DNA from: Micromonospora sp. KC723 | Lineage (GTDB): Bacteria > Actinomycetota > Actinomycetes > Mycobacteriales > Micromonosporaceae | DNA: 64,000 nt | NCBI RefSeq assembly: GCF_004348595.1 | Contig: NZ_SMKD01000003.1 | Coordinates: 1 to 64,000, forward strand | Reading direction: 5' to 3' | Part shown: positions 16,082 through 60,295 of the stretch, piece by piece | Position numbering within the stretch: position 1 is the stretch's first letter | Layout: the number at the start of each line of letters is the position of its first letter | Notes under the pieces: model-generated | Databases searched by the model: none | What the model was told of the DNA's origin: nothing | Seen by the model: the letters and a program-made list of their open reading frames with translations, nothing else | Translations under genes and position numbers: made by a program

Positions 16082-17656
16082 ATGAAGTGGACCGGTCGAG
16101 CCGTACCCGTCGTCGTCGCCGCCCTCGCGGGCCTCGCCGCCCGCGACCTCCTACAGCGCGACCACGCGCTGCTGCGCACCTTCCCGGTGATCGGCCGGGC
16201 CCGCTACCTGCTGGAGTCGATCGGGCCGGAACTGCGGCAGTACATCGTCGCCGGCAACAACGAGGAGCGCCCGTTCACCCGCGACCAGCGACGCTGGATC
16301 TACGCCTCGGCCAAGCAGCAGAACAACTACTTCGGCTTCGGCACCGACAACGACATCGAGTACACCCCCGGCTATCCGATCATCAAGCATCGCACCTTCG
16401 GCCGGGCGGTGCCGCCGTCGGCCCCCGCGGCGGGTCACGACGTGCGCCTGCCGGCGGCGAAGGTGCTCGGCGGGGCGCGCGGGCGGGCGAAGGCGTTCCG
16501 GCCCCCGTCGGTGGTCAACATCTCCGCGATGAGCTTCGGTTCGCTGTCCGGCAACGCGGTGGCGGCGTTGAACAGGGGCGCGGCGCTGGCGGACTGCCTG
16601 CAGAACACCGGCGAGGGCGGACTGTCGCCGTACCACCGCAACGGCGGCGACCTGGTCTTCCAGCTCGGCACCGCGTACTTCGGCTGCCGCGACTCCCGGG
16701 GCCGGTTCGACCTTGCCCGGCTCAAGGACCTGGTGGCCGGGGCGCCGGTGCGGGCGCTGGAGGTGAAGCTCAGCCAGGGCGCGAAGCCGGGACTGGGTGG
16801 GCTGCTGCCCGCGGCCAAGGTGTCGGCGGAGATCGCCGCGACCCGGGGCGTCCCGGTGGGCGAGGACTGTGTCAGCCCGTCCCGGCACGCCGAGTTCTCC
16901 GACTGCGACAGCCTGCTGGACTGGGTGGAGCTGCTCGCCGCCGAGACCGGCCTGCCGGTGGGCATCAAGTCCGCCGTGGGTGACCTCGGTTTCTGGGAGG
17001 AGCTGACCACACTGATGCGCGACACCGGGCGCGGCGTGGACTTCGTGACCGTGGACGGCGGTGAGGGCGGCACCGGCGCCGCGCCGCTGATCTTCACCGA
17101 CACGGTGTCGCTGCCGTTCCAGCAGGGCTTCGCCCGCGTCTACAAGACCTTCGCCGAGCGCGGTCTGCACCAGGACGTGGTCTTCGTCGGGTCCGGCAAG
17201 CTGGGGCTGCCGGACAACGCCGTCGTCGCGTTCGCGCTCGGCTGCGACATGGTCAACGTCGGCCGGGAGGCGATGCTGGCGGTCGGCTGCATCCAGGCGC
17301 AGAAGTGCCACACCGACACCTGCCCCACCGGCGTGGCCACCCAGAACAGGTGGCTGGCCCGGGGGCTGGACCCGAAGCTGAAGTCGGTGCGGGCCGCCAG
17401 CTATGTGCGTACCCTACGGCGGGATCTCGTCAAGGTCGCCGAGGCGTGCGGGGTGGAGCACCCCGGGCTGATCGACACCGACACGGTGGAGATCCTCGAC
17501 GGGCGGACCTCGTCCAGACCGCTCCGGGAGGTCTACGGCTACCGGCCCGGGTGGGGGCTGCCGTCAGCCGCCGACCGGGCGGAAATCGTCGCGCTGATGA
17601 CCGGGGAGGCGCCCCGGGGCGGCAGCGCTCCCCCGTCGGTCACCGCGGTCGGCTGA
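16082..17656 (+). CDS. FMN-binding glutamate synthase family protein
   Basis: A 524-residue protein similar to the synthase domain of glutamate synthase (GltB-like, stand-alone). An N-terminal hydrophobic helix (about 7-22) may attach it to the membrane. The FMN-barrel core shows NISAMSFGSLSGNAVAALNRG, NTGEGGLSPYH, KLSQGAKPG, VTVDGGEGGTGAAP and the 3Fe-4S cysteines CIQAQKCHTDTC (Cys403, Cys409, Cys414), followed by PTGVATQ. The amidotransferase domain of full GltB is missing, so it is not a complete glutamate synthase. Some stand-alone members are archaeal-type synthases; most are uncharacterised. I use the ATG at 16082 because the GGAAA site is too close to a GTG nine bases upstream. Confidence 0.88.
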   Translation: MKWTGRAVPVVVAALAGLAARDLLQRDHALLRTFPVIGRARYLLESIGPELRQYIVAGNNEERPFTRDQRRWIYASAKQQNNYFGFGTDNDIEYTPGYPIIKHRTFGRAVPPSAPAAGHDVRLPAAKVLGGARGRAKAFRPPSVVNISAMSFGSLSGNAVAALNRGAALADCLQNTGEGGLSPYHRNGGDLVFQLGTAYFGCRDSRGRFDLARLKDLVAGAPVRALEVKLSQGAKPGLGGLLPAAKVSAEIAATRGVPVGEDCVSPSRHAEFSDCDSLLDWVELLAAETGLPVGIKSAVGDLGFWEELTTLMRDTGRGVDFVTVDGGEGGTGAAPLIFTDTVSLPFQQGFARVYKTFAERGLHQDVVFVGSGKLGLPDNAVVAFALGCDMVNVGREAMLAVGCIQAQKCHTDTCPTGVATQNRWLARGLDPKLKSVRAASYVRTLRRDLVKVAEACGVEHPGLIDTDTVEILDGRTSSRPLREVYGYRPGWGLPSAADRAEIVALMTGEAPRGGSAPPSVTAVG

Positions 17657-17659
17657 GGC

Positions 17660-18362
17660 TCACTCCTCGATCGCGCCACCGACCGCGCGCAGATGCTCCC
17701 GGAACGTCACCGTCGGGTCCGCCGCCCGCCGGGCCAGGTACGCGTCGAACCGTACCTGCTCGCGCAGGGAGACACCGGCGTGGACCCGTTCGGCCTGCCG
17801 CCGCTCGGTGTCCCGGATCGACGCGGCGAGGTCGCACAGTTCCCCGATCGGTTGGCACGAACAGCACCCCGTCGTCGTCCCCGAGGGCCAGGTCGTGGTC
17901 GTCCACCGTCCACCGTCCCACCCGCGCGCGGGCGAGGGCGTGCGGTGGACGCGGATCGAGCCGCAGCGGGCCGGTGGGGATCGTGCCGAGGCTGAACACC
18001 GGCAGCCCGATCGTCCGGATGTCGGCGGTGTCCCGGTGCAGGCCCCAGACCACCACGCCGGCCAGGCCGGCGGCCTGCGCCTCCCGCACCACGAGGTCAC
18101 CGACACAGCTCTCGTCGGTGCGTCCGGCGTTGTCGACGACGAGACCATCGCCCGGTGCTGCCCGGTCGACAGCCTCCAGGAAGATGTCGACGCTGCCGAC
18201 GTGCCGGGTCGGGGTGACCCGGCCGGCCAGCCGCCCGCCGGGAACGACCGGCCGGACGGCGGCGGGCGCGCAGCGCACCGGCAGCCCGGCACGCAGGCAG
18301 GCATCAGCGACGTGGGCGGTGGTCAGCGAGGCGAACCGTCGGCACAACTCAGCACTGCTCAT
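17660..18362 (-). pseudogene. RraA-like aldolase gene with a frameshift
   Basis: The gene starts with MSSAELCRRFASLTTAHVADAC and reads as a clear RraA/HMG-aldolase-like protein through GDGLVVDNAGR, VVVWGLHRDT and LGDDDGVLFVPT. Near 17850-17860 the reading frame breaks. The rest of the protein (IGELCDLAASIRDTERRQAERV ... AVGGAIEE, with a stop at 17660) continues in another frame. The span is 703 bases, one more than a multiple of three, so a net one-base insertion (or two-base loss) explains it. It may be true decay or an assembly error. RraA-like proteins act on hydroxy-keto acids or, in E. coli, modulate RNase E. It is convergent with the FMN-protein gene. Confidence 0.85.
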
Positions 18363-18528
18363 CGCCTGACGGTAGGGCGGCGTACCCGCCCCCGTGGCGG
18401 TCCACTTCCACACCACCGGCCTGCGACCGGCTCGCGCCGCCGTCGACGGCGCGAGCCGTCGCCCCGTCCGAACATCGCCCTACGGGACCCTGCCGCCTGC
18501 GAGTTCCGGAAGGGTCACCCGGCGACGT

Positions 18529-19281
18529 TCAGGATCGGGTCGGCCCGGACAGCACCGCCGGTTGTCGGACGTCGTGGGTACGCAGCTGCCCGCACATGCC
18601 CCAGCGTGCGGCTTCACCGGCGGGGGAACCCAGCAGCATGGACTGCCGTAGGTGGTGGCCGTCGCCGCGTTCGAGGGCGTCGAGGATGTCGGCCGTGTGC
18701 CGGGTTTCGCGTTCGACGGTTTCCTTCCAGGTTTGCCGCCAGGCGGCGATCCTCGGTCTCACCAGCGCCACGGCACTGGCGTACAGCTGCTCCAGCGGCG
18801 CGAGGTCTCCCGCGTCCGCGCTGGCCACCAACCGCTGGAACCCGCTGACGGCCAGATCCCGCCGTCGTCGCACAGCTTCGTCGATCTCCCCGGCCGGCGC
18901 GTTCGCCGGTAGCGCCGCCGCGGCCGTGTAGCGGGCGGCGTCGGCGACGATCTCGGGTGGAAAGGTCATCACCGCGTCACCGGCCTCGGGCAGGCCGGCG
19001 TTCTGCATCACGACGACGACCTGCAGGCTGCCGTGGTTGACGGCGCGGTGGATGGTGCCCGGGGTGAACCAGACGGTCATCCCGGCGGCCAGCGGCGTCG
19101 ACCGGAACCCGGACGCGTCGAGGGTCTGCAGTTCGCCTTCGCCACCGGTGACGACGTACGCCTCGGTGGAGGCGGTGTGCAGATGGGGGGTGCCCCCGGC
19201 CAGGCCGTCGGCGCAGGGACTGGAGTACACCGACAGCCTGCTCACGGAGGTGCCGCCGGGAAACGGCGGGGTGCGGTTCAC
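18529..19281 (-). CDS. Cupin-domain protein
   Basis: A 250-residue protein. The N-terminal half is a cupin: GGTPHLHTASTEAYVVTGGEGELQ supplies the metal-binding histidines and glutamate, and FTPGTIHRAVN the second motif. The C-terminal half (about 120-220) is helical, with EAVRRRRDLAVSGFQRLV and LEQLYASAVALVRPRIAAWRQ, and has no recognised family. The GTG start overlaps the stop of the DUF6807 gene by four bases (GTGA), so translation is coupled. As third gene of a dehydrogenase-DUF6807-cupin operon, it probably acts on, or senses, the same sugar-like metabolite. Confidence 0.8.
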   Translation of the reverse strand: MNRTPPFPGGTSVSRLSVYSSPCADGLAGGTPHLHTASTEAYVVTGGEGELQTLDASGFRSTPLAAGMTVWFTPGTIHRAVNHGSLQVVVVMQNAGLPEAGDAVMTFPPEIVADAARYTAAAALPANAPAGEIDEAVRRRRDLAVSGFQRLVASADAGDLAPLEQLYASAVALVRPRIAAWRQTWKETVERETRHTADILDALERGDGHHLRQSMLLGSPAGEAARWGMCGQLRTHDVRQPAVLSGPTRS

Positions 19282-20240
19282 GCCGGCTCCCCGGTGGGCG
19301 AGGGGGCCGTCCACCGGTCCAGGGCCTGGCGGCCCTGGTCGGCGAGGGCCGTGGTGCCGTCGGTGCCGTGGTCGCCGCTGGCGACGAGCACCGCGTACCG
19401 GAAGGTGATGGTCTGCTCGGGCGCGAAGGGCAGTTCCTCACTGAAGAAGGGTGCCGGGCACAGGCAGGCGAACTCCTCGGTGCGAACGAACCACTGCGGG
19501 GGGTGCTGCGGGTTGGCGGTGTCGTCGATCATGATGACCGTCGACGAGGTCCCGGTCTCGTCGTGGCGACCGCGGAAGGCCAACCACCCGGACCGGGTAC
19601 CCCGCAGGTCGTCGCCGCCGGTGCCGAAGGGCGACTGGACGGTGCCGCCGGTGAAGGAGCGTGGGCCACGCCAGAACAGGCCACCGTAACCGGCGTTCTC
19701 GCGGCCCTTGGTGGTCGGTGAGCCGATGTTCAGGGTCGCGCCGGACACGTTCGTCATGGTGGTTTCGAAGATCAGCACCCAGCTGGTGGCATCGAGGACG
19801 GTCGCCGTGAGGCTGCGGTGTTCGGTGATGACCTGGCGCCCCTGTTGGGAGATCCAGTCCAGGCGGTGGGCGATGTCGGCGCGGGCGTCCGTGGCGGCCA
19901 GCGCGGTCATGCCACGGTGGACGGCGCTGCCGTTGTTGTCCAGTTGCACGTAGGAGCGACCGCGCAGGTAGGTGGGGCCACCCCAGAAGTTGTGCTCCCC
20001 CACGTTCGGCAGCGACCAGGCGATGCCCTTGTGCCACACGTGGTCGTGCGGCCGGAACAGCGAGACGACGTCGCCGGCCAGGGTACGGATCGGGTGCAGG
20101 TACGGCTTGGGCGATTCCAGCTGCGCGGTGTCCGGCCGGTACACGTAGCTGAACAGCGCCACGTCGCCGGCCCGGACGTCGACGGCGCGTCCCACGGCGT
20201 GGTCGAGGTGGAAGGTCATCGGACGGTCGTTGTTCACCAT
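19278..20240 (-). CDS. DUF6807 (PmoA-like) family protein
   Basis: A 320-residue cytoplasmic protein of the DUF6807 family, often labelled PmoA-like by annotation pipelines but unrelated to methane monooxygenase. Markers are RPYLHPIRTLAG-like (here KPYLHPIRTLAGDVVSL), RPHDHVWHKGIAWSLPNVG and NFWGGPTY, then a galactose-mutarotase-like beta-sandwich with SPTTKGRENAGYGGLFWRGPRS. The His-rich RPHDHVWHKG segment may be a metal or active site. Homologues usually neighbour Gfo/Idh dehydrogenases in sugar-catabolic operons, as here. Its ATG overlaps the end of the dehydrogenase by seven bases and its stop overlaps the cupin start, so all three are one transcript. Confidence 0.85.
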   Translation of the reverse strand: MVNNDRPMTFHLDHAVGRAVDVRAGDVALFSYVYRPDTAQLESPKPYLHPIRTLAGDVVSLFRPHDHVWHKGIAWSLPNVGEHNFWGGPTYLRGRSYVQLDNNGSAVHRGMTALAATDARADIAHRLDWISQQGRQVITEHRSLTATVLDATSWVLIFETTMTNVSGATLNIGSPTTKGRENAGYGGLFWRGPRSFTGGTVQSPFGTGGDDLRGTRSGWLAFRGRHDETGTSSTVIMIDDTANPQHPPQWFVRTEEFACLCPAPFFSEELPFAPEQTITFRYAVLVASGDHGTDGTTALADQGRQALDRWTAPSPTGEPA

Positions 20241-21316
20241 GGGGTTCCTGTTCCGTTCATGCGCGTGGCGAAGGGGTGCTCGGCGTCGATCTGGCCGCTT
20301 CGAATCGGCTCACCGGTGAACGCCGAGGCGTACAGCGCGGCGGCGAACTCCATCGTGCGGCGGGTGTCGACGAGCCCGACCGGTGGTGCGGCGCCGGCGT
20401 CGAGGGCATCGTAGACGGCGGCGAGCTGCCCGGGGTGGCCGCTGACGGCCTCGGACCGGGTGGCGACCCACTCGGTGCGCACGTCCTCGTGGCCCGGGAC
20501 GGCGGTGACCGTCCAGTCGTCGTCGGTGTAACCGTAGAGGTGCTCCACCTCGACGGTGGCGTACTCGAAGTCGAACCGCAGTGCCGAGGTCTGCCGAGGC
20601 GAGACCACCGAGTTGACGACCGACGCCACGGTGCCGTCGGCGAAGGTGACCAGCGCCATCGACACGTCCTCGGTGTCGACGCGGCGGGCGCGCCGGGCGG
20701 CGACGGCGGTCACCGACTCCCAGGGGCCGAGCACCGACAGCAACAGGTCGAACTGGTGGATGCCGTGACCCATGGTCGGTCCGCCGCCTTCGGTCTCCCA
20801 CCTGCCCCGCCACGGCACCTCGAAGTAGGCGTCGTCCCGGAACCACAGCGTGTGGCAGATGGCCAGTAGACAGCGGCCGAGCCGGCCGGCGGCGGCCATC
20901 TCGCGAAGCCGGATGGCGCCGGCCCCGAAGCGGTGCTGGAAGACGGTGGCGAAGTGCGCACCGGACGCCCGGGAGGCGGCGGCGAGGGTGTCCAGCTCGG
21001 CGAGCGACAGCGCCGGGGGCTTCTCGACCAGCACGGTGACGCCCGCCCGCAGACACTGCAGGGCCAGCGGCGCGTGCGAGACGGGTGGCGTGCACACGTG
21101 GATCACGTCGAGTCGCGCGTCGGCGAGCAGCTCCGCGAGGTCCGTGTAGACCTTCGGCACAGCCCACCTGGCGGCGAACTCTCGCGCCCGGTCGGGGTCG
21201 ACGTCGACCACCGCGACCAGTTCGGCACGCTCGTCGTACGCACGCAGCGCCTGCGCGTGCGCGTTGGCGATGCCGCCGGTGCCGACGATCGCGGTGCGGT
21301 ATCGGGGTCGAGGCAT
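20234..21316 (-). CDS. Gfo/Idh/MocA family oxidoreductase (operon leader)
   Basis: A 360-residue dehydrogenase. The N-terminal Rossmann motif is TAIVGTGGIANAHAQAL. The cofactor site is VLVEKPPALSLAELDTL with the catalytic EKP lysine; FQHRFGAGAIRLREM and GGGPTMGHGIHQFDLLLSVLG follow, where the His in GIHQFD corresponds to the family's catalytic region. It should oxidise or reduce a sugar or cyclitol using NAD(P). The ATG follows GAAGGAG. It is the first gene of the three-gene operon with DUF6807 and cupin proteins and differs clearly from the family member at 2286. Confidence 0.9.
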   Translation of the reverse strand: MPRPRYRTAIVGTGGIANAHAQALRAYDERAELVAVVDVDPDRAREFAARWAVPKVYTDLAELLADARLDVIHVCTPPVSHAPLALQCLRAGVTVLVEKPPALSLAELDTLAAASRASGAHFATVFQHRFGAGAIRLREMAAAGRLGRCLLAICHTLWFRDDAYFEVPWRGRWETEGGGPTMGHGIHQFDLLLSVLGPWESVTAVAARRARRVDTEDVSMALVTFADGTVASVVNSVVSPRQTSALRFDFEYATVEVEHLYGYTDDDWTVTAVPGHEDVRTEWVATRSEAVSGHPGQLAAVYDALDAGAAPPVGLVDTRRTMEFAAALYASAFTGEPIRSGQIDAEHPFATRMNGTGTPW

Positions 21317-21704
21317 GAGGGGTGCTGCTCCTTCGGTGCGGGGGGTGGCCGCTGCGCGGAGGTCGTCTCGTCGAACAGAGCGACGACAACTCCGACCTGG
21401 GCTTCGCCGTCGGCGACGTCTGACCGACCACAACCGTCGGCACGGTGTGTGACGCCGGCCTCGCCCCAGGTCGCGACGTCGCCGCCGCCGGGTACGACGA
21501 TATCGGCTCGGTCACCGACGTCGTGCCGCCCCTTCGCGGGCGCCCGTCCGGTGGCGGCGCGAGCTGGGGCACGGATGATGGCGCCACCCGGTAGGGGCGG
21601 CGCCATCATCCGGGGGTCGGGGCAGACGACCTCCACGGCGTGCTGGTGGGTCTGCTCGGGCCGCGGTGCGGCCACGGACCGCGGGTGCCAGGTGAGCGTC
21701 GTGC
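21317..21704 (-). other. Promoter region of the dehydrogenase operon, with terminator
   Basis: About 390 bases between two reverse-strand genes. It should hold the promoter of the operon beginning at 21316 and the end of the polyester-hydrolase transcript, marked by the hairpin at 21572-21612. Other open frames here look like GC-rich shadows. No operator could be assigned. Confidence 0.4.
21572..21612 (-). terminator. Strong hairpin terminator
   Basis: A perfect 14-base-pair inverted repeat (CGGATGATGGCGCC / GGCGCCATCATCCG) with a 13-base loop lies 93 bases past the stop of the polyester-hydrolase gene. It is the longest perfect stem noticed in the window. Confidence 0.75.
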
Positions 21705-23048
21705 CTATGGGCTCACACAGGCGAGCACGGGGGTGCTCGGCGTGCCTCCGCCGATGAACCCGAACGTGGTCGACGTCCCCGGCTGGAGGGAGCCGTTGTA
21801 CGACACGTTACGCACGGTGACGGCCGAGCCGCTGGTGGTCAGCGTGCCGTTCCAGACCTGGCTGATGCTCTGCCCGCTGCCCAGCGTCCATCGGACGGTC
21901 CACCCGTTGATCGGCGAGTTGCCCGCGGTCACCGTGACCTCTGCCTGGTAGCCACCGGGCCACGAGTTGGTGGTGCGGTAGGTGGCGCGGCAGGCGCCAT
22001 CGGGCGCCGGCGTGGTGGGGGTCGCCGACGGGCTCGTCGAAGGAGTCACCGACGGGCTCGTCGTCGGGGTCGGCGGCGCGGTGGTGGTGGGTGGACTGGT
22101 GGGCGCACCGGGCGGCGTCAGCGGGCACGTGCTGCGGTACTGGGTGATGCCGGTGCGGTCCGTCAGCGGGCACAGGAACTGGCTGTAGCGGGTGTCGTTG
22201 TCGACAAAGATCTTCAGCCACGGGATGACCACCCGCATCATGAGCGGGTTGTTCGAGGTCGGGAAGCCGTGGCCGGCACCGGCGAACTCCAGGTACGCGC
22301 TCTCGGTGCTGGCCGGTATCCCGTTGTACAGGGTGCTGATGCTGGCCGGGGTGGTGGTGCCGTCGTTCTGCCCGGCGATGAGCATGGTCGGTACCCGGGT
22401 GTTGGTCAGGTTCTGCGACGGGCTGAACGGCGCCAACCCGACCGCGGCCTTCAGCGAGGGACGCCGCAGCGCCGCGGACATCGCGCCACCACCACCCATG
22501 GAGTGGCCCATCACCGCCGCGCGACTCGCGTCGACCCGGTTGCGTACCGGGCTCTGCTGGGTCAGGTAGTCCAGGGCGGCCAGCAACTGGGTGCCCCGGG
22601 CGGTGTCCCAGTCGTTGCGGTTGATGGTGTCCACCCCGATCACGACGAACCCGAACGAGGCCAGCCAGTGGCCCATCCAGGCCCCCTCGGCGGCCCAGGT
22701 GGCGGTGTAGCCGGGCACGATGGCCACCGCGCCGAAGGTCCCCTGACTGGTGTCGGTCGGGTGGTAGATCACGCCGCCGCCGAAGCCGTTCCCGGCCGGC
22801 ACGGTCACCTGTGTGGTGGCGAAGGTGCCGCGCGAGGCCCGCACACTCTCGGCGGTGGGGTCCGGGCCCCGCTGGTAGGGATTGTCCGCGGCCGAGGCCG
22901 GACGGATCACCGCCACGATCGACAACGCGCAGAGCGCGACCGTGGCCAGGACGCCGGCCCGCCTCACCAGCCGACGCGAGGGACGGACCGCGGGCCGGTT
23001 GGCCCGCGAACCGCTTGGTTCATGGTGTTCGATTCCGTTCTGGGGCAT
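21705..23048 (-). CDS. PETase-like polyester hydrolase (cutinase) fused to CBM2
   Basis: A 447-residue secreted enzyme. A long twin-arginine-like leader (RRLVRR at 25-30, cleavage near ASA-AD at about 54) precedes an alpha/beta hydrolase that aligns closely by eye with actinobacterial cutinases and PETase: NPYQRGPDPT, AIVPGYTA (oxyanion Tyr114), GHSMGGGG (Ser183), QNDGTTTP (Asp229), GAGHGF (His260) and NDTRYSQFLC. Cys293 and Cys308 match the conserved C-terminal disulfide. The PETase-specific second disulfide is absent and His182 replaces PETase's Trp, as in ordinary cutinases. A Pro/Thr linker (310-350) leads to a CBM2 module (Cys353 to Cys445, with NSWPGG and INGWTVRW). It probably cleaves plant cutin or similar polyesters while bound to cellulose. 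Confidence 0.9.
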   Translation of the reverse strand: MPQNGIEHHEPSGSRANRPAVRPSRRLVRRAGVLATVALCALSIVAVIRPASAADNPYQRGPDPTAESVRASRGTFATTQVTVPAGNGFGGGVIYHPTDTSQGTFGAVAIVPGYTATWAAEGAWMGHWLASFGFVVIGVDTINRNDWDTARGTQLLAALDYLTQQSPVRNRVDASRAAVMGHSMGGGGAMSAALRRPSLKAAVGLAPFSPSQNLTNTRVPTMLIAGQNDGTTTPASISTLYNGIPASTESAYLEFAGAGHGFPTSNNPLMMRVVIPWLKIFVDNDTRYSQFLCPLTDRTGITQYRSTCPLTPPGAPTSPPTTTAPPTPTTSPSVTPSTSPSATPTTPAPDGACRATYRTTNSWPGGYQAEVTVTAGNSPINGWTVRWTLGSGQSISQVWNGTLTTSGSAVTVRNVSYNGSLQPGTSTTFGFIGGGTPSTPVLACVSP

Positions 23049-23196
23049 TGCGAGGTGCCTCCTTGTCGGCTGTCAGGTGCGAGCGTGGGGCGGTGACGTT
23101 CTCTTCCGGAGGGCGTGACCGCGGCGCGCCTCCCGCCCGCCACGAGCCCCGGCTGGGTGGCCAGGGCTCGCGGCCAGGATGGAGCGGACGGGCCGG

Positions 23197-24699
23197 CTAC
23201 GGCAGCCAGCGGATGTGGGGGTTGAGGCGACCGTTGCGGTCGAAGACGGCCATGTTGTCCCACTCGTTGCCCGAGTTGGTGATGTCAGCCGGGTCCCAGC
23301 CGTTGCCGGGCACCGCGTACCAGGTGGGCTCCCAGTAGAAGATTCCGATGGCGCCGGCGTTGCGGGCGGTGTTCTGCACCGCGGCGAAGTTCGCCTGCTG
23401 CCCGGCCGGCGTCGTCTCGTAGCCCGAGCAGCCGCTGGTGACCACGTTCCGGGTGCTGTCGGAGTTGGCCGTGGTCTGCGGGTAGGCGGTCTCGGCGATG
23501 ATGACCGGCTTGCCGTACCGGGACCGCATGTCCGACACCACACCGGCCAGGTTGGACAGGCTGCCGTGCCAGAAGCAGTAGTACGACAGGGCGGTGATGT
23601 CCCACTGCACGCCCTGCGCCCGGATACCGTCGTAGAACCACCGGGCGCCGCTCTCCACGTTCGCGGTGTGGATGATCACCTGAGTGCCACTGTTACACGC
23701 CTTCGTCGCGTTGTAACCCGCCTTCAGCAACCGCCCCAGATTGGTGAAGTTGTTGTTCACCACCCGACCGTCGTCCCACAACATCCCTGTGTTGATCTCG
23801 TTACCGATCTGCACACTGTCCGGCACCGTGCCCTGCGCCCTCAGGCTCGTGCACACGTCGTACGTGTAGTCGTACACGTCCGTGGTCAACCGGTCGATCC
23901 CATGACCCGCCCACGCCGCCGGCTTGAACTGCTTTCCCGGATCCGCCCACGTGTCCGAGTAGTGGAAGTCCACCATCAACTTCAGGCCCTTGGCCTTCAC
24001 CGTCCGGGCGTACTGCAACACCTTGTCCTTGTTGTTGTAACCACTACGCGGGTTGTTCCAGATCCGCAACCGCACATAGTTCACGCCCGCGCTCTTGAGA
24101 ATGTCCAACGCATCACCCTGGACACCATTGGCGTAGTAGTGCCGGGCCCCGAGATCGAGGGCCCGCTGTCCGGTCGACACGTCCGCACCCTGCATGATCG
24201 AGGTGTTGCCACCACCGTCCGCGGTGGTGACCTCGAGGTAGTCGACGTTCGCGAGCCCGCCGGAGGTCGTCGCGGCCAGCCGCACGGTGTTGGTTCCCGC
24301 GGCCAACTGCACGCTCAGGCCCTTGGTTGCCCAGCTGGTCCACGCGCCGGTGGCCTCGAAGCCGAGCGCGGACTGCACCACGGCGCCGTTGACGCTGACG
24401 TCCGCCGGCCGGCTCGCCGTGCTGCCGTTGGCGAACCGGACAGCCAGGTTGGCGGTGCCCGCCGCGGGCGCGGTCACCGTGAACGTGACAGCGGCACCGA
24501 CGGCGTTGGTCGTGTCGCAGAAACCGCTGCCGGAGTATCCGGAGTGGTTGGAGGCGACCGCCCCACCACACACGGCGGGTGACGACTCCGCCTCGTAGCG
24601 GTTGGTGGCGGCATGCGCACTGAGCGCCAGCACGACGGCGGTGCCGGACAGAGCCGTCGTCACCGCCATGACTGCCGAAAGTCTCGTCAACGGTTTCAT
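23197..24699 (-). CDS. GH53 endo-beta-1,4-galactanase with CBM35-like domain
   Basis: A 500-residue secreted enzyme. A signal peptide (1-31, ending AHA) is followed by a beta-sandwich carbohydrate-binding module (about 33-158; RYEAESSPA, SGSGFCDTTNAVG, VDYLEVTTA), CBM35/CBM6-like. The GH53 barrel follows: QGADVSTGQRAL, GVNYVRLRIWNNPRSG, LMVDFHYSDTWADPGKQFKPAAW, QIGNEINTGMLW (acid/base Glu301) and VIIAETAYP (nucleophile Glu403). The family hydrolyses beta-1,4-galactan side chains of rhamnogalacturonan I. A TGAAACCGTTGAC-like sequence, similar to operators elsewhere in the locus, spans the first codons. The gene is probably regulated with the polysaccharide locus. Confidence 0.93.
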   Translation of the reverse strand: MKPLTRLSAVMAVTTALSGTAVVLALSAHAATNRYEAESSPAVCGGAVASNHSGYSGSGFCDTTNAVGAAVTFTVTAPAAGTANLAVRFANGSTASRPADVSVNGAVVQSALGFEATGAWTSWATKGLSVQLAAGTNTVRLAATTSGGLANVDYLEVTTADGGGNTSIMQGADVSTGQRALDLGARHYYANGVQGDALDILKSAGVNYVRLRIWNNPRSGYNNKDKVLQYARTVKAKGLKLMVDFHYSDTWADPGKQFKPAAWAGHGIDRLTTDVYDYTYDVCTSLRAQGTVPDSVQIGNEINTGMLWDDGRVVNNNFTNLGRLLKAGYNATKACNSGTQVIIHTANVESGARWFYDGIRAQGVQWDITALSYYCFWHGSLSNLAGVVSDMRSRYGKPVIIAETAYPQTTANSDSTRNVVTSGCSGYETTPAGQQANFAAVQNTARNAGAIGIFYWEPTWYAVPGNGWDPADITNSGNEWDNMAVFDRNGRLNPHIRWLP

Positions 24700-25200: not shown

Positions 25201-26181
25201 TCACGCCCCCGCGACGTCCACCGTGCTGCGGAGGGCTCCGGCCCTCAGTTCGGCGACGGTGTGCGCCCGGATCCGAGAGTGCTGCTCCCCGCCGGCGACG
25301 TGGGCGGCGACGGCTCGTATGTGTTCCTGAGCCGGTTCGGCCAGCCCGTCGTACACCGCCACGAACAGCTCCCGAGCGCGGGCGCGCGGCCAGCCCGACG
25401 GCATCAGCTCGACCGGGAGCAGGGGGTCGAGCACGGGGAACCGGCGGTACGTGTCCATCATCTCGGTGCGGGCCCGTACCGCCTCGGCGCCGGTGACACC
25501 GCCGGCCGTCATCCGGCGCAACAACGGGCTCCACCGCCGGATGAAGGCCCGGTACTGGGCGGAGATGCCCGCGACGTCCCAGGCGTCGACCGGGCTGCGG
25601 GAGGCGCCCGTGTCCAGTTCGAGGTGCCGCGCGCGGAACACGCTCGTCGTGCCGAACGCCACCGCCGCCAGCACCGCTCTCGCCGCCGCCGTCATCGGGC
25701 GCGGCGACACCCAGACGCCGTCGTAGAGCGGGGCGTACCCCCGCCACCGCAGGTCGTCCCGCAGCGCACGCCGTTGCGCGCTCTCCTCCTTGGGCATGGA
25801 GAAGGCGACGATGGTCCACCTGCCGTCCCAGGACTCACGATCCGCGGCGAACGCCGCGATCTCGGCACCTCCGGCCGAGAGGTTGACGGCGGCGGGCCGC
25901 GTCAGGCGGTATGAGCTGTGCCGTCCCCGCCGGCTACCCTCCAGCACCCCGCGGCGGGCCAGCCTGCTGATGGCCGTGCGAGCGGCGCCGCTGGTCACGC
26001 CGAACTCGCCGAGCAGGGCCACGATCGCCGCCGAGGGCAACCAGGCACGGTTGTCCATGGTGTAGTCCGCGACGAGGGTCACCGCCAGCCCCTGGGGTGA
26101 GTTGGCCTGCCTACGCGGCAGCCGCACCGATGCGACAGGCACGTCGGGGAAGATCTCCTCGATGTCGAAGGTTCTGACCAC
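25201..26181 (-). CDS. PaaX family transcriptional regulator
   Basis: A 326-residue regulator. The N-terminal winged-helix domain includes WLPSAAIVALLGEFGVTSGAARTAISRLARRGVLEG, and the RGRHSSYRLT wing is typical of PaaX proteins. The PaaX-type central ferredoxin-like domain follows (WDGRWTIVAFSMPKEESAQRRALRDDLRWRGYAPLYDGVWVSP) and a C-terminal helical domain with FPVLDPLLPVELMPSGWPRARARELF. I place the start at GTG 26181 with GGAG upstream; an upstream in-frame start would add Arg-rich sequence without family character. PaaX in E. coli senses phenylacetyl-CoA, but actinobacterial homologues control varied catabolic genes. It is divergent from the sugar ABC operon and upstream of GH53, both plausible targets. 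Confidence 0.85.
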   Translation of the reverse strand: MVRTFDIEEIFPDVPVASVRLPRRQANSPQGLAVTLVADYTMDNRAWLPSAAIVALLGEFGVTSGAARTAISRLARRGVLEGSRRGRHSSYRLTRPAAVNLSAGGAEIAAFAADRESWDGRWTIVAFSMPKEESAQRRALRDDLRWRGYAPLYDGVWVSPRPMTAAARAVLAAVAFGTTSVFRARHLELDTGASRSPVDAWDVAGISAQYRAFIRRWSPLLRRMTAGGVTGAEAVRARTEMMDTYRRFPVLDPLLPVELMPSGWPRARARELFVAVYDGLAEPAQEHIRAVAAHVAGGEQHSRIRAHTVAELRAGALRSTVDVAGA

Positions 26182-26753
26182 GGCGTACTCCGGCGAGCAT
26201 CGGGGGCACAGGGCGGTACCGACTGTAGTGCGGACGCTCACCACAGGACACGCCCGCCACCGTGTGATCGAACCCTGCCGAAGCCGACCACGCGGACGCC
26301 TCGCCACGACCCGTCGCCAGGGCACTGCTCGCCGCGGCCGGGCTCTTGACGCGGTCCCGCGGGCGTGGCACTTTCAGATCACCAGCTCATAGAACGATAT
26401 CTGTTCACCTTGTGTCGGTAACCGCGATGGCGTGCGCGCCGCGTACGCCGAAGGAGACCACATGACGGCATAGATTCTGGCCGGCCAAGCCTACTGAGGC
26501 CGGTCGGCGCGCCGGCCGGCGGCTCCAGGAACCACGCGCGGATCGTCGATGACATCTTGGCGGGTGCCTCCGTCGACCGCGTAGCGCTGGGGTGCCCGGC
26601 CAGGGTCGTTACGCGTCAACCGCCCTAGGCCGTGCGCGTACGTCAGGAGGACGCGGGTCGTCGACCGGGCAGCTCGGCAGGGCGACAGGGGTCCGCGGCA
26701 CACCGCCACGCAGCGCCGGACGGGCGCACCGCTTATAGCAGACGGAGGATCAC
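26182..26753 (+). promoter_or_regulatory. Long divergent control region of the sugar ABC operon
   Basis: About 570 bases between the PaaX-like and ABC transporter genes. The AT-leaning block TAGAACGATATCTGTTCACC (26390-26409) contains a GAAC-GTTC imperfect palindrome, a possible regulator site. A TTGAC element lies at 26346. At 26462-26473 a three-codon frame, ATGACGGCATAG, follows an excellent GAAGGAGA ribosome site and would make only Met-Thr-Ala. The remaining 280 bases up to the lipoprotein gene show no supported gene, so the operon may have a long leader. Confidence 0.45.
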
Positions 26754-28028
26754 ATGCAATTTTTGAAACGATTCATAACTGTCGCTGCCGTCGCGTCACT
26801 CGCGCTGGCCAGCGCCGGCTGCGGTGACGACGGGGGCGACTCGGCCGGGTCCGGTCCCGTCACCTTGCGGTACTCGTGGTGGGGCAACGCCGATCGTGCC
26901 GCGTTGATGCAGAAGGCGATCGACCTCTTCCAGACCAAGAACCCGAACATCAAGATCACGCCGAGCTTCCAGGAGTACGAGGCGTACTGGCAGAAGATGG
27001 CGACGGAGACCGCCGGGAACAACGCACCCGACGTGTTCCAGATGGACTTCTCCTACCTGCGCGAGTACGCCGACCGCAACGCCCTCTACGACCTGAAGAA
27101 GCAGGAGGGCGACGCGCTGAAGCTCGACGACCTGCTCGAGGGGCTCAAGGGCGCCGGCGAGGTCAAGGGCGGGTTGTACGGCGTCCCCGTCGGCGGCAAC
27201 ACCTGGGGGTACATGTACAACCCGGCGGCGTTCGCGCAGGCCGGCGTGCCGGAGCCGAAGCCCGGCTGGACCTGGAACGACTACCGGACCACGGTGGCGA
27301 AGATCACCCAGGCCACCAAGGGCAAGGTGTACGGCGGCGGCAACTACGTCGGCAGCTACTACAACCTGGAGTTGCAGCTGCGGCAGGAGGGCGGGCTGCT
27401 GTACACCGAGGACGGCAAGCTCGGCTTCGACAAGGCCCGACTGGCGAAGTTCTTCAGCGAGGGCAAGGCGCTCGCCGACGCCAAGGCCGTGCTGCCGATC
27501 GAGAAGAGCGTCCAGATCAAGCCGCAGCACGCGCTGGAGCTCGACCTGATCGCCGGCGAGATTGGCTGGGACAACTTCATGGCCCGGTACGCGGCCAGCA
27601 CCAAGGCACAGCTCAAGCTGGGGCCGGTGCCGTCGGACAACCCGAACTCGTCGGGCCAGTACCTCAAGCCCGCCATGCTGCTCAGCGTCTCCAAGAAGAC
27701 CAAGCACGCGGAGGCGGCCGCCAAGCTGATCTCCTTCATGATCAACGACCCTGAGGTCGGCAAGATCTTCGGCGCCAACCGCGGCCTGCCGGCCACCAAC
27801 GCGCAGCGCGCCGCGGTCCAACTGGAGGGCCCGCTCGCCACCGTCGCCGCGTACGAAGAGGGGCTCAAGGAGCAGCTCACCAAGGCGCCGCCCGCGCCGC
27901 CGAAGGGCGCCGGCACCCTGGAGCAGGCGTTCATCCGGATCGCCGAGGAACTACAGTACGGCCGGATCAGCGTCGACGAGGCGGTCAACCAGTTCTTCAC
28001 CGAGGTCGAAGAGACCCTCGAGTCCTGA
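26754..28028 (+). CDS. Sugar ABC transporter substrate-binding lipoprotein
   Basis: A 424-residue extracellular solute-binding protein of family 1. The lipoprotein signal ends LASAGC (Cys23, the lipidated residue), followed by an acidic linker and the YSWWGNADR start of the mature fold. Other family features are DVFQMDFSYLREYADR, GVPVGGNTWGYMYN, IGWDNFMARYAAS and a C-terminal lobe with ISFMINDPEVGKIFGANRGLP. It should bind an oligosaccharide outside the membrane and deliver it to the two permeases that follow. ATG with GGAGG. The first of four coupled genes; position in the pectin locus and the YesL-like fourth gene suggest a pectic oligomer (inference). Confidence 0.92.
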   Translation: MQFLKRFITVAAVASLALASAGCGDDGGDSAGSGPVTLRYSWWGNADRAALMQKAIDLFQTKNPNIKITPSFQEYEAYWQKMATETAGNNAPDVFQMDFSYLREYADRNALYDLKKQEGDALKLDDLLEGLKGAGEVKGGLYGVPVGGNTWGYMYNPAAFAQAGVPEPKPGWTWNDYRTTVAKITQATKGKVYGGGNYVGSYYNLELQLRQEGGLLYTEDGKLGFDKARLAKFFSEGKALADAKAVLPIEKSVQIKPQHALELDLIAGEIGWDNFMARYAASTKAQLKLGPVPSDNPNSSGQYLKPAMLLSVSKKTKHAEAAAKLISFMINDPEVGKIFGANRGLPATNAQRAAVQLEGPLATVAAYEEGLKEQLTKAPPAPPKGAGTLEQAFIRIAEELQYGRISVDEAVNQFFTEVEETLES

Positions 28029-28030
28029 CG

Positions 28031-28987
28031 ATGACAACGATCACGTCGACCCAGCGCAGCGAGGTCGGCAGCACCGGACCGGCGGGCCCCCGCAAGCGGG
28101 CCCGCCGGTCCGGCGACGGCGTGGCGGGCTACCTCTTCCTCTCGCCGTGGATCATCGGGATCCTGCTGCTGACCCTCGGTCCGATGGTGACCTCCCTGTA
28201 CCTGTCGTTCACCGACTACGACCTCTTCGATTCCCCGGAGTGGGTCGGCCTCGACAACTACCAACGGATGTTCGAGGACGCCCGGTGGCTCAAGTCGGTA
28301 CGCGTCACCGCGCTGTACGTGGTGCTCTCCGTACCGGTCAAGCTGGCCTGCGCGCTGGCCGTCGCCATGCTGCTCAACAACGAACGGCGCGGGCGCGCCT
28401 TCTACCGGGCGGCGTTCTACGGCCCCTCGCTGATCGGCGCGAGCGTCAGCCTGGCCATCGTCTGGAAGGCGATGTTCAGCGACGACGCCGTGATCGACCG
28501 GCTGCTACGCGCGATCGGCGTCAACACCGGCGGCTGGGCCGGGAACCCCGACTTCTCACTGCTCATGCTCGTGCTGTTGGCCGCCTGGCAGCTCGGCGCT
28601 CCGATGGTGATCTTCCTCGCCGGGCTCAAGCAGGTGCCGCGGGAGCTGTACGAGGCGGCCGAGGTGGACGGCGCCGGCCCGTGGCGGCGGTTCCGGTCCG
28701 TCACGCTGCCGATGATCTCCCCGGTGATCTTCTTCAACCTGCTGCTGGAGACCATCAACGCGTTCCAGGTCTTCACGTCCGCGTACATCGTCGGCGGGCC
28801 CAACGGCCAACCGGCCGGCACCACACTGTTCTACACCATCTACCTCTTCGACCGCGGCTTCGGCGACTACCGGATGGGGTACGCCTCGGCCATGGCGTGG
28901 ATGCTGCTGGCCGGCGTCGGGCTGGTCACGCTCGTCCTCTTCCGCACCGCTCGGGGCTGGGTGTACTACTCGGGGGACAAACGATGA
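28031..28987 (+). CDS. Sugar ABC transporter permease (MalF-like)
   Basis: A 318-residue inner-membrane protein with about six helices after a basic cytoplasmic N-terminus. The permease loop that contacts the ATPase is ELYEAAEVDGAGPWRRFRSVTLPMISP, the EAA motif of carbohydrate uptake (CUT1) systems. Two bases separate it from the binding-protein gene and its stop overlaps the next start (ATGA). It forms the channel with the second permease. No ATPase gene is nearby; actinobacterial CUT1 systems often share one MsiK-type ATPase encoded elsewhere. Confidence 0.93.
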   Translation: MTTITSTQRSEVGSTGPAGPRKRARRSGDGVAGYLFLSPWIIGILLLTLGPMVTSLYLSFTDYDLFDSPEWVGLDNYQRMFEDARWLKSVRVTALYVVLSVPVKLACALAVAMLLNNERRGRAFYRAAFYGPSLIGASVSLAIVWKAMFSDDAVIDRLLRAIGVNTGGWAGNPDFSLLMLVLLAAWQLGAPMVIFLAGLKQVPRELYEAAEVDGAGPWRRFRSVTLPMISPVIFFNLLLETINAFQVFTSAYIVGGPNGQPAGTTLFYTIYLFDRGFGDYRMGYASAMAWMLLAGVGLVTLVLFRTARGWVYYSGDKR

Positions 28988-29820
28988 GACCAAGACTGTC
29001 CACCGTAGCCTGGCACGCCGGTGCCATCGCGCTGCTCGCCGTCGTGCTCTACCCGATCCTCTGGGTCCTGGCGGCGACCTTCAAGCCCACCGAGGACATC
29101 ATCGGCAGTCTCCAACTGCTGCCCACCCGGGTCACGACGACCAACTACGACCGTGCGGTGGAGGGCATCGCCGGCATCAGCGTGGGGCGCTTCTTCTGGA
29201 ACTCGACGCTCCTGGCGGTGCTGTCCGTCGTGGGCACGGTGGCGTCGTCGGCCCTGGCCGCGTACGCGTTCGCCCGGCTGCGGTTCCGCGGCCACGGGGT
29301 CATGTTCGTCCTCATGATCTCCACGCTGCTGCTGCCGTTCCACGTGCTCATCATCCCGCAGTACGTGGTCTTCCAGAAGCTCGGCCTCGTCGACACCTAC
29401 GCGCCGCTGCTGCTGGGGAAGTTCCTCGCCGCCGAGGCGTTCTTCGTCTTCCTCATGGTGCAGTTCATGCGGGGCATCCCGTACGAACTGGACGAGTCCG
29501 CGAAGATCGACGGCGCCGGCCACTGGGCCATCTTCTGGAACATCCTGCTGCCACTGTCGCGGCCCGCCATCATCACCACGTCCATCTTCACCTTCATCTG
29601 GACCTGGAACGACTTCTTCGGACCCCTGATCTACCTCAGTACCCCGGAGAAGTACCCGCTGCCGTTGGCGCTGCAGCTCTTCATCGACGAGACCGCCGGC
29701 TCCGACTTCGGCGCGCTCATGGCGATGTCGATGCTCGCGCTGGTACCCGTCATCCTGTTCTTCCTGTTCTTCCAGCGTTTCCTCGTCGAGGGCGTCTCCA
29801 CGTCGGGCCTGAAGGGATGA
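28984..29820 (+). CDS. Sugar ABC transporter permease (MalG-like)
   Basis: A 278-residue membrane protein with six helices. The EAA loop reads ELDESAKIDGAGHWAIFWNILLPLSRPA, and the C-terminus (FFLFFQRFLVEGVSTSGLKG) is typical of MalG-type permeases. The ATG overlaps the first permease's stop by four bases, and its own stop overlaps the YesL-like gene in the same way, so the four genes are translationally coupled. Confidence 0.93.
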   Translation: MRPRLSTVAWHAGAIALLAVVLYPILWVLAATFKPTEDIIGSLQLLPTRVTTTNYDRAVEGIAGISVGRFFWNSTLLAVLSVVGTVASSALAAYAFARLRFRGHGVMFVLMISTLLLPFHVLIIPQYVVFQKLGLVDTYAPLLLGKFLAAEAFFVFLMVQFMRGIPYELDESAKIDGAGHWAIFWNILLPLSRPAIITTSIFTFIWTWNDFFGPLIYLSTPEKYPLPLALQLFIDETAGSDFGALMAMSMLALVPVILFFLFFQRFLVEGVSTSGLKG

Positions 29821-33178: not shown

Positions 33179-33222
33179 GGCGCACTCCACGTGGTGGGGA
33201 TCCGCGGCGGAAGACCTGCTAT

Positions 33223-33234
33223 GGAAACGCTTAC
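33223..33234 (-). promoter_or_regulatory. Candidate LacI-type operator (lyase/DUF2264 divergent region)
   Basis: On the reverse strand GTAAGCGTTTCC, matching at 10 of 12 positions the GTAACCGTTTAC site before the dehydrogenase gene at 40.1 kb. It lies between the divergent lyase and DUF2264 genes, in an AT-rich dip. Confidence 0.55.
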
Positions 33235-33336
33235 CATCCTGTGCAGGAAATCAGATGCGTCGATACGCTGTCAATACCGTGCGGCGGCGATCCGCTCCTG
33301 TTGCCAGGCACGTTGATCACCCTGTGAAGGTGCCCT

Positions 33337-38076: not shown

Positions 38077-38104
38077 GCGGTCCCTCCTCTCTAGAGGGTG
38101 ACAT

Positions 38105-38983
38105 CTATGCCTTGAGGGCCCCGGTGAGGACACCCTTGACGAAGTAGCGCTGGAGGAACGGATAGACGACCACGATCGGCGCGGTGGCGAGCACCACCAC
38201 GGCCATCTGTGTCGACTGTGGCGCGGCGGTGGCCACGGCCTCCCCGGTCATGTCCGCGCCTCCGGTCACGTACTGCCGCAGGACCGTGCCGATCGGCCAC
38301 TTCGACTGGTCGTTGAAGTAGATGATGGCCTCGAAGAACCGGTTCCAGTACGCCACCGCGTAGAACAGACCGACGACCGCCAGCACCGCCTTCGACAGGG
38401 GCAGCACCACCCGCCACAGCATGGCCAGGTCCCCGGCGCCGTCGATGCGCGCCGCCTCCAGCAACTCCGCCGGAATGGACTGGAAGAAGCCGCGCATCAC
38501 GACCAGGTTGAAGACGTTGACCAGGAACGGCAGGATCAGCGCGGCGTACTGGTCGAACAGTCCGGTGGTGCGCACCACCAGGAACAGCGGGATCATTCCC
38601 GGCGGGAAGAGAAACGTGAACAGGACCAGCAGCAGGACCGGCCGGCCGCCGTACACCCCCGGCCGGCTGAGCGCGTACGCCAGGAAGACCGTGCAGGTCA
38701 GGCTCAGTGCCGTACCGACGACGGTGACGCCCGCGCTCACCAGCAGGGCGCGCGTCACGACACCGCCGTCGAGGATCTCGGTGTACGCGTCGAAGGTGAT
38801 CCGCCGCGGCCACACGACCCAGCCGCCGTTGGCGATCACGTCCTGGGGCGCGGCGAGGCTCGTCGCCACGACGGTCCAGATCGGGAACAGCACGAGCAGC
38901 ACGACCACGGCCAGCGCGACCGCCTTCGCCGCCCGGATGGCCGGCCCGGGTCGCCCCTGCCAGGCAGGGTACGCATGCCTCAT
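38105..38983 (-). CDS. ABC transporter permease (LplC/YtcP-like)
   Basis: A 292-residue six-helix permease. The EAA loop is ELLEAARIDGAGDLAMLWRVVLPLSKAV, and the C-terminus ends YFVKGVLTGALKA, typical of LplC/YtcP proteins. The ATG at 38983 overlaps the upstream permease stop by four bases, so the two are coupled. It forms the channel with the LplB-like permease for the 36436-38076 binding protein. Confidence 0.92.
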   Translation of the reverse strand: MRHAYPAWQGRPGPAIRAAKAVALAVVVLLVLFPIWTVVATSLAAPQDVIANGGWVVWPRRITFDAYTEILDGGVVTRALLVSAGVTVVGTALSLTCTVFLAYALSRPGVYGGRPVLLLVLFTFLFPPGMIPLFLVVRTTGLFDQYAALILPFLVNVFNLVVMRGFFQSIPAELLEAARIDGAGDLAMLWRVVLPLSKAVLAVVGLFYAVAYWNRFFEAIIYFNDQSKWPIGTVLRQYVTGGADMTGEAVATAAPQSTQMAVVVLATAPIVVVYPFLQRYFVKGVLTGALKA

Positions 38984-54688: not shown

Positions 54689-54699
54689 GACTGCTCCCC

Positions 54700-56166: not shown

Positions 56167-56200
56167 GTGATCGTCCTCCCGATGCCCTCCGGAAACGGCC

Positions 56201-56214
56201 GGAAAGCGCTTGCC
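56201..56214. promoter_or_regulatory. LacI-type operator candidate before the esterase genes
   Basis: GGAAAGCGCTTGCC is palindromic at 6 of 7 position pairs with a perfect AAGCGCTT core. It lies 35 bases upstream of the esterase start and may link this operon to a LacI-type regulator. Confidence 0.5.
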
Positions 56215-56393
56215 GTACGATAGAAAGCGATGGAAGTCGATGTCGATCGGGTGGTCGCCCGGCGGTCGATTCGCTGCGCCGGGCGGCATACGCGCGCTGG
56301 ACCGACCTCCGGGCAAGGTCATCCGACCAGGTGGTGAGGTGCGCGGGGCGTACCCGAGGCACGCCCCGCACGTGCCGGCGACGCGATGGCGGG

Positions 56394-60287: not shown

Positions 60288-60295
60288 CTAACTCG

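What the first reader, a model, noticed from the sequence alone, without database searches (positions are those of the whole stretch)
21705..23048. PETase-like polyester hydrolase naturally fused to a CBM2 module
The catalytic domain shows PETase/cutinase family signatures (NPYQRGPDPT, PGYTA, GHSMGGGG, NDTRYSQFLC), with Ser183-Asp229-His260 and the conserved C-terminal disulfide, and a CBM2 cellulose-binding module follows a Pro/Thr linker. Most known actinobacterial cutinases are single-domain; engineered CBM fusions are used for polyester binding, so a natural one is of interest. Its placement beside a galactanase and pectin genes suggests that the native substrate is cutin close to cellulose.
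Basis: partly seen in the sequence, partly recalled or inferred. Interest (0 to 1): 0.62.

Follow-up and report, generated by a model that had tools for sequence, protein, structure and literature searches.

The report
PETase-like enzyme with cellulose-binding module
An actinobacterium carries a secreted relative of plastic-degrading PETases that naturally bears a cellulose-binding module; such modular PETases turn out to be common in its family and often sit beside, or are fused to, enzymes that digest hemicellulose, which makes it testable what PETases do in nature.

Summary
The gene is real: 21705-23048 (-), 447 aa, signal peptide, PETase-family domain (Ser183-Asp229-His260, Cys293/Cys308), Pro/Thr linker, CBM2. 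Nearest solved chains are 9xv7 and 9xv6, "C3 cluster PET hydrolase" (84.9 and 83.7% identical). So the polyesterase-family reading holds; dienelactone hydrolase is rejected. The natural fusion is no rarity in its clade: of 123 in-clade genes examined (this one included), 110 carry an appended C-terminal domain (70 ricin-type, 33 CBM2, 2 CBM35, 5 unassigned), swapped between close relatives; 25 more distant, classical-type genes have none. 9xv6 is identical to the catalytic domain of a gene that carries CBM35. The clade lacks the clamp Trp of the classical group (0 of 110 against 25 of 25). Context points to hemicellulose and pectin at least as much as to cutin: seven relatives are single GH10-PETase polypeptides; GH62 or GH10 lies within about 1.5 kb of 40 of the other 103 modular genes and of 0 of 37 single-domain ones. 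The window copy follows a GH53 galactanase; the 9xv6-identical gene, in another genus, also adjoins GH53. Native substrate (cell-wall polysaccharide esters or cutin/suberin) and PET activity of this protein are untested.

The parts
21705..23048 (-). CDS, 447 aa: signal peptide - PETase-like catalytic domain - Pro/Thr linker - CBM2
23058..23064 (-). AAGGAGG ribosome-binding site, 9 nt before the ATG
   Evidence: sequence read directly
22890..23048 (-). N-terminal signal peptide, residues 1-53 (RR..., hydrophobic core, ...ASA|ADN); cleavage point inferred
   Evidence: sequence; no signal-peptide program was run
22116..22889 (-). catalytic domain, residues 54-311, PF12740; 84.9% identical to PDB 9xv7, 83.7% to 9xv6
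22500..22502 (-). codon of nucleophile Ser183 (GHSMG); Ser in 110 of 110 modular genes aligned
22362..22364 (-). codon of Asp229
22269..22271 (-). codon of His260
21996..22115 (-). Pro/Thr/Ser linker, residues 312-351
21708..21995 (-). CBM2, residues 352-447; Cys353/Cys444; Trp363 and Trp399 align with two Trp of the C. fimi Cex CBM2, the third is Tyr417 (counted by hand)
23197..24699 (-). upstream same-strand neighbour: CBM35-GH53 (endo-galactanase family), 148 nt gap
21572..21612 (.). 18-bp perfect hairpin after the PETase gene, possibly a transcription end (no T-run)
   Evidence: z -6.8 for the 70-nt stretch; no terminator by consensus scan

Best explanation
A secreted modular serine esterase of the 'C3 cluster' branch of the PETase family. 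Shown by sequence: signal-peptide-like N-terminus, Ser183-Asp229-His260 domain, linker, CBM2. Inferred: the CBM2 docks the enzyme on cellulose in plant cell walls and the catalytic domain cuts ester bonds within reach, working together with the neighbouring secreted galactanase (GH53). The most likely native targets are esters in the hemicellulose/pectin matrix (hydroxycinnamoyl or acetyl groups, or cutin/suberin joined to it) rather than free cutin alone; hydrolysis of PET and other synthetic polyesters would be a side activity of the open cleft.
For: Domains and triad. The two nearest solved chains are named PET hydrolases, and 9xv6 is 100% identical over 255 aa to the catalytic domain of L041, which in its genome carries CBM35 and is followed on the same strand by GH53. 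Clade-wide: 110 of 123 in-clade genes carry an appended domain. Seven GH10-linker-PETase polypeptides in two separate parts of the tree. GH62 or GH10 (55% identity or more to a reference from L193) within the fetched flank, about 1.5 kb, of 40 of the 103 other modular loci and of 0 of 37 single-domain loci. Pfam on 101 upstream ORFs: GH62 in 39, GH10 in 8 (seven of these are the fusions themselves); in 70 control ORFs neither is among the 25 families shown. Upstream ORF on the same strand in 82 of 94 without the fusions, against 17 of 35. Clade-specific cleft changes. The window's CBM2 is 64-76% identical to 31 of 32 other PETase CBM2s (the last, L184, 42%) but 48-63% to seven CBM2s elsewhere in its own genome, so it probably belongs to the lineage and is no recent graft.
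Against: No activity data for this protein. The GH62 linkage is concentrated in one clade of ricin-type genes (37 of 39 cases) and is not seen at the window, so it bears on this protein only through kinship. The GH53 linkage is seen in two genomes only. More than half of the modular loci show neither GH62 nor GH10 nearby. CAZymes are abundant in these genomes; the 148-nt gap to GH53 may form a hairpin (z -1.3, not beyond shuffles), so co-transcription is not shown. Many cutinases also live among plant-wall enzymes (recalled), so context does not exclude cutin. No match to a feruloyl- or acetyl-esterase Pfam model above its cut-off. The third CBM2 Trp is Tyr.
Confidence: 0.6

Rival explanations
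1. It is a cutinase/suberinase in the strict sense: the catalytic domain opens the cutin polyester and the CBM2 holds it at the cuticle-cellulose boundary.
For: Many solved members of the family are named cutinases. [quoted passage not shown] CBM2 and pectin-enzyme neighbours fit a plant-surface setting.
Against: The partners fused or closely linked across the clade are largely xylanase, arabinofuranosidase and, at the window, galactanase. The Trp and Phe at the two cleft positions of the classical type are replaced (0 of 110 modular genes keep either).
Confidence: 0.33
2. It is foremost an aromatic (feruloyl-type) ester hydrolase on arabinoxylan or pectic galactan, built like known xylanase-esterase fusions.
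For: GH10-PETase single polypeptides have the layout recalled for xylanase-feruloyl esterase and xylanase-acetyl esterase enzymes. Ferulate on arabinose of arabinoxylan and on galactose of pectic galactan (recalled) would explain both the GH10/GH62 and the GH53 partners. A feruloyl esterase, PET46, degrades PET (PMC10495362, passages).
Against: No direct test; acetyl esters would fit the same context. Esterase PF00756 scores 21.8 bits, just under its cut-off of 22.
Confidence: 0.3
3. Dienelactone hydrolase or other non-polyesterase alpha/beta hydrolase.
For: DLH matches at 33.6 bits.
Against: PF12740 scores 296 bits over the whole domain; 84.9% identity to a chain named PET hydrolase; Ser nucleophile in GHSMG.
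Confidence: 0.02
4. A decaying or unexpressed copy.
For: A second, broken PETase remnant exists in the same genome, so decay does occur in this lineage.
Against: The window copy is full length with a strong ribosome-binding site, intact triad and cysteines.
Confidence: 0.03

Closest known systems
PDB 9xv6 / 9xv7, 'C3 cluster PET hydrolase' (catalytic domains)
   Same: 84-85% identity; 9xv6, through the identical L041, has the same letters at all 11 triad and cleft columns compared
   Different: chains of 266 residues without a module; the gene with 9xv6's catalytic domain (L041) carries CBM35, the window's carries CBM2
PDB 9xv5/9xv8 ('Lipase') and 9o9w ('poly(ethylene terephthalate) hydrolase')
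   Same: same clade; 9xv5 is 99.6% identical to L123, a ricin-bearing gene with GH62 upstream; 9o9w is identical over 254 aa to L165, an in-clade single-domain gene
   Different: L123 and L165 are 69 and 64% identical to the window's catalytic domain; other module or none
Classical single-domain actinobacterial cutinases/PETases (LCC, TfCut2, PHL7 type; grouping of LCC and TfCut2 from recall, L089 tested)
   Same: PF12740 family, Ser-Asp-His, C-terminal cysteines
   Different: single domain; Trp and usually Phe at two cleft positions where the window has Phe208 and Gly261; no Glu121 insertion
PET hydrolase candidate 407 with CBM35 (Erickson et al. 2022, PMC9772341, passages)
   Same: a natural carbohydrate-binding module on an enzyme screened as a PET hydrolase
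   Different: described among that paper's groups 2-4, apart from its conserved-core groups 5-7; its kinship to the window protein was not tested here
Engineered cutinase-CBM fusions (LCC-ICCG with CfCBM or TrCBM, reviewed in PMC10577388, passages)
   Same: PETase domain plus type-A CBM
   Different: man-made; the window protein is natural

Membership tests
PETase family (PF12740) | whole-domain match above the curated cut-off | tested here: met
   296 bits against cut-off 28
PETase family (PF12740) | GxSxG nucleophile, Asp, His; C-terminal disulfide cysteines | tested here: met
   Ser183, Asp229, His260, Cys293/Cys308
PETase family (PF12740) | hydrolysis of PET or other polyesters | not testable with these tools
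   84.9% identity to a chain named PET hydrolase is suggestive only
NCBIfam equivalog NF051441, bis(hydroxyethyl) terephthalate hydrolase | score above the curated cut-off of 520 | tested here: not met
   335 bits
classical single-domain (LCC/TfCut2-type) cutinase | Trp of the substrate clamp and Phe next to the catalytic His (role recalled) | tested here: not met
   Phe208 and Gly261 in the window; Trp in 0 of 110 modular genes against 25 of 25 classical, Phe in 0 of 110 against 21 of 25
'C3 cluster' PET hydrolases | close sequence kinship to the named members | tested here: met
   84.9 and 83.7% identity; groups with L041, whose catalytic domain is 9xv6; the original definition of the cluster could not be read
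CBM2 | family HMM and terminal cysteine pair | tested here: met
   94 bits, Cys353/Cys444
CBM2, cellulose-binding type | three surface Trp (recalled) | tested here: inconclusive
   two of three (Trp363, Trp399); the third is Tyr417, against C. fimi Cex
dienelactone hydrolase (PF01738) | Cys nucleophile (recalled) and best family score | tested here: not met
   Ser183; 33.6 against 296 bits
feruloyl/acetyl esterase families (Pfam Esterase PF00756, AXE1 PF05448) | family HMM above cut-off | tested here: not met
   PF00756 21.8 bits against 22; AXE1 not listed at E 0.001 for the window protein
feruloyl/acetyl esterase (by activity) | release of ferulate or acetate from wall polysaccharides | not testable with these tools
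   bench test needed

The most novel reading that the evidence does not exclude
The modular (C3) branch of the PETase family is not a cutinase group at all but a branch of plant-wall carbohydrate esterases, working on feruloyl or similar esters of arabinoxylan and pectic galactan as the esterase partner of GH10, GH62 and GH53 enzymes (in seven genes physically fused to a GH10 xylanase); their activity on the aromatic polyester PET is a by-product of that aromatic-ester specificity.
Probability: 0.3. Interest if true: 0.75.

Novelty: new variant of a known kind. Interest (0 to 1): 0.55.

Why it matters
What PETases do in nature is often taken to be cutin hydrolysis. Here a whole branch, including proteins already crystallised under the name PET hydrolase, is mostly modular in nature and tied by gene order and by protein fusion to hemicellulases. 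That gives concrete substrates to test, ready-made natural CBM-PETase pairs for polyester binding, and a warning that constructs of the bare catalytic domain may lack the native binding module.

Tried and rejected
Locus L039 is nonetheless a genuine homologue and was used; it duplicates L140 and was dropped. Single-sequence structure prediction gave pLDDT 37 and was not used. The consensus promoter/terminator scan found nothing. Long open frames L121, L162, L051 and L146 looked like giant fusions: in L121 and L162 the GH62 lies in another frame; the extra length in L051 and L146 does not read like a protein to my eye (not scanned whole); the long frames of L196-L198 hold only PETase-type matches by Pfam. 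Module labels in the tree were set by a script: L163 is called ricin there but its central gene has a CBM2 tail, and the five GH10 fusions with unassigned tails stand under GH10fus; the tallies rest on Pfam. L045's CBM2 is truncated and L126's ricin domain is short; both are counted as modular. Limits of the counts: the family search scored 7 candidates per genome, so gene numbers are lower bounds; all its listed matches of 60% identity or more were fetched; of the class-wide matches 28 new loci were fetched, five of them modular and 23 single-domain, and two further matches at 61% (G440:C37, G650:C78) were not. L156 is cut by a contig end: among the 13 in-clade genes without module, left out of the linkage test. 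Nine of 110 modular loci had no scorable upstream ORF (101 scanned). Pfam tallies show 25 of 43 and 25 of 72 families. My first same-strand and linkage figures (89 of 101; 47 of 110) counted the seven GH10 fusions as neighbours; one search gives them without (82 of 94; 40 of 103). Fisher's p values (4e-7 and 1e-5) treat related loci as independent and are descriptive only. The cluster paper of Seo et al. was not available; I know it only through mentions in PMC11219463 and PMC12283258 (passages) and recall.

Full report
What is there. The window carries an intact 447-codon gene at 21705-23048 (-) with AAGGAGG nine bases before its ATG. Pfam gives PETase PF12740 (residues 53-309, 296 bits) and CBM_2 PF00553 (353-439, 94 bits). 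Ser183, Asp229, His260, Cys293/Cys308 and, in the CBM, Cys353/Cys444 are in place.

What it is closest to. Among solved structures the best matches are 9xv7 and 9xv6, named "C3 cluster PET hydrolase"; identity over 258 residues is 84.9 and 83.7%. The dienelactone hydrolase family scores 33.6 bits. The NCBIfam equivalog for BHET hydrolase is matched at 335 bits, below its cut-off of 520. The CBM2 aligns with that of C. fimi Cex (1exg); two of three Trp are kept and the third is Tyr417 (position counted by hand from the sequence).

Is the fusion unusual? Not within its clade. In the window's family, 252 of 354 genomes have a catalytic-domain match at E<=1e-40; in its genus, 113 of 160 (these counts include the single-domain type). 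That the genus is Micromonospora is an inference: L039, from M. matsumotoense, and G275, a genome of the window's genus, share a contig length of 60348 and the gene. I fetched all listed family matches of 60% identity or more, two at 58-59%, and 28 loci from a class-wide search (75 of 394 genomes match at E<=1e-60). After dropping duplicates, 148 catalytic domains including the window's were aligned: 110 with an appended C-terminal domain, 13 of 60% identity or more without (one, L156, cut by a contig end), and 25 single-domain genes below 60%. One modular gene, L184, is also just below 60% but groups with the modular clade. Pfam types of the 110: 70 ricin-type, 33 CBM2 including the window's own, 2 CBM35, 5 unassigned (L039 left out). 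A careful tree of 69 separates modular from single-domain genes with 100/100 support; the quick tree of 148 keeps the 25 classical genes apart (SH-aLRT 100) and places the 13 without module among the modular ones. The module changes between close relatives: in the four-gene group that holds the window, two genes have CBM2 (the window's and L043) and two CBM35 (L041, L042). The window's CBM2 is 64-76% identical to 31 of 32 other PETase CBM2s (L184: 42%) and 48-63% to seven CBM2s elsewhere in its genome, out of some thirty hits there, so it has probably been with the PETase for long.

A link to the laboratory. 9xv6 is 100% identical over 255 residues to the catalytic domain of L041, which carries CBM35. 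9xv5 ("Lipase") is 99.6% identical to L123, a ricin-bearing gene with GH62 upstream; 9o9w is identical over 254 residues to L165, an in-clade gene without module. These PDB chains are 266-269 residues long, the length of the catalytic domain. I found no mention of native modules of this clade in the passages that I read. An enzyme called "C3 N1377" gave halos on BHET plates, fewer than Mipa-P, and none on PET plates in cell-free form, in PMC12283258 (passages); whether it is one of these chains I cannot tell.

A different cleft. At the position of the Trp found in 25 of 25 classical-type genes the 110 modular ones have Tyr 58, Gly 25, Phe 21, Ala 5, His 1; the 13 in-clade genes without module have Tyr 8, His 5; the window has Phe208. 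The Phe beside the catalytic His (21 of 25 classical) is Gly 64, Leu 41, Ser 2, Asn 2, Met 1; the window has Gly261. A one-residue insertion, Glu121, is present in 107 of 110 against 0 of 25, but also missing in 10 of the 13 in-clade genes without module. His at 236 and Phe at 240 (25 of 25 classical each) are mostly Tyr (96) and Leu (94); the window has Ser236 and Leu240. That these columns are the substrate clamp of IsPETase and LCC is from recall; the Trp-bearing motif of one classical-type gene (L089) and of its solved relatives is printed.

What it works with. Upstream of the window gene, 148 nt away on the same strand, lies a CBM35-GH53 protein. L041 is also followed on the same strand by GH53, about 74% identical. 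No other GH53 was found in the fetched flanks of the 149 loci or in the other larger neighbourhoods, eight in all. A PaaX-like regulator related to the window's (25201-26325) stands in the flank of L043 (69%), L123 (64%), L118 (62%) and L184 (59%). Across the clade, seven genes encode GH10-linker-PETase in one frame: L068, L109, L115, L125 and L132, whose tails Pfam does not assign, and L167 and L170, which end in a ricin domain; they lie in two separate parts of the tree. Of the other 103 modular loci, 40 have GH62 (39) or GH10 (L049) upstream within the fetched flank; of 37 single-domain loci, none. Pfam on 101 upstream ORFs of modular loci: GH62 39, GH10 8 (seven being the fusions), GDSL esterases 9, CBM2 7, polysaccharide deacetylase 3, GH26 2, GH5 2, and GH53, GH27, GH54-type and GH127 one each, among the 25 families shown. 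In 70 flank ORFs of single-domain loci neither GH62 nor GH10 is among the 25 families shown; GH1 is in 4, carboxylesterases in 4 and CBM2 in 2. The upstream ORF is on the same strand in 82 of 94 modular loci without the fusions against 17 of 35. The GH62 stop lies 164-405 nt before the PETase domain, signal peptide included. In L192 and L193 the upstream gene is a GH10-ricin-GH62 enzyme. Against this: 37 of the 39 GH62 cases fall in one clade, so independent origins are few; 63 of 103 non-fused modular loci show neither; and the window itself has neither beside it.

Reading. Shown: a PETase-family esterase of a largely modular clade, with a signal-peptide-like N-terminus and a CBM2. Inferred: it is secreted, the CBM2 targets cellulose, and the enzyme serves plant-wall breakdown. 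The clade's commonest partners act on arabinoxylan (GH10, GH62), and the window's on pectic galactan (GH53). Both polymers carry ferulate and acetyl esters (recalled), so polysaccharide-bound esters are an economical common target; cutin or suberin remains open. [quoted passage not shown] PMC13234336 (passages) lists xylan, suberin and cutin as natural substrates; a feruloyl esterase that degrades PET is known (PMC10495362, passages).

Print record. My ten full-text searches (open-licence PMC papers only, listings cut at 7-20 papers) and the passages read in eight papers showed no description of CBM2- or ricin-bearing PETases of this clade nor of GH10-PETase fusions; one CBM35-bearing candidate, enzyme 407, is described by Erickson et al. 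(PMC9772341).

Also seen. The genome holds a broken remnant of a second PETase on contig C87, with pieces of the catalytic domain and the end of a CBM35 (L005 1384-1840), so this lineage probably had more than one modular PETase.

Noticed in passing
L005 1384-1840 (own genome, contig C87): Broken remnant of a second PETase gene: parts of the catalytic domain with internal deletion and frame loss, and 24 residues of a CBM35 end 83% identical to L042.
   Followed up: partly
window 53453-62047: Second plant-polysaccharide cluster: GDSL esterase with CBM2 (53453-54721), CE2-type esterase with ricin domain (54700-56415), GH30_2 with ricin domain (56394-58739), GH43 with ricin domain (60296-62047).
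   Followed up: partly
window 30449-35289: PcRGLX-type rhamnogalacturonan lyase and a DUF2264 protein, with ABC importer genes at 26754-29820 and 36436-39373: looks like a pectin-use region.
   Followed up: no
L190 7254-8716: The GH53 next to the CBM35-PETase gene has a CBM35 match after its catalytic domain, the reverse of the window's CBM35-GH53 order.
   Followed up: no
window 21572-21612: Perfect 18-bp hairpin with 5-nt loop behind the PETase gene, z -6.8, no T-run; possibly a two-way terminator.
   Followed up: partly
L068, L109, L115, L125, L132 (C-terminal about 85 aa): Five GH10-PETase fusions end in a short Cys-bounded domain that no Pfam model matched (for L068 and L115, for all five).
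   Followed up: partly
L083, L136, L146: Some modular PETases read GHSAGG instead of GHSMGG at the nucleophile.
   Followed up: no
L043, L118, L123, L184 and window 25201-26325: A PaaX-like regulator recurs near modular PETase genes (59-69% identical to the window's), although PaaX is known (recalled) from phenylacetate control; it might sense an aromatic product.
   Followed up: no
window 17640-21433: Minus-strand set RraA-like, cupin, DUF6807, GFO/IDH/MocA oxidoreductase directly after the PETase gene; looks like a catabolic operon of unknown substrate.
   Followed up: no
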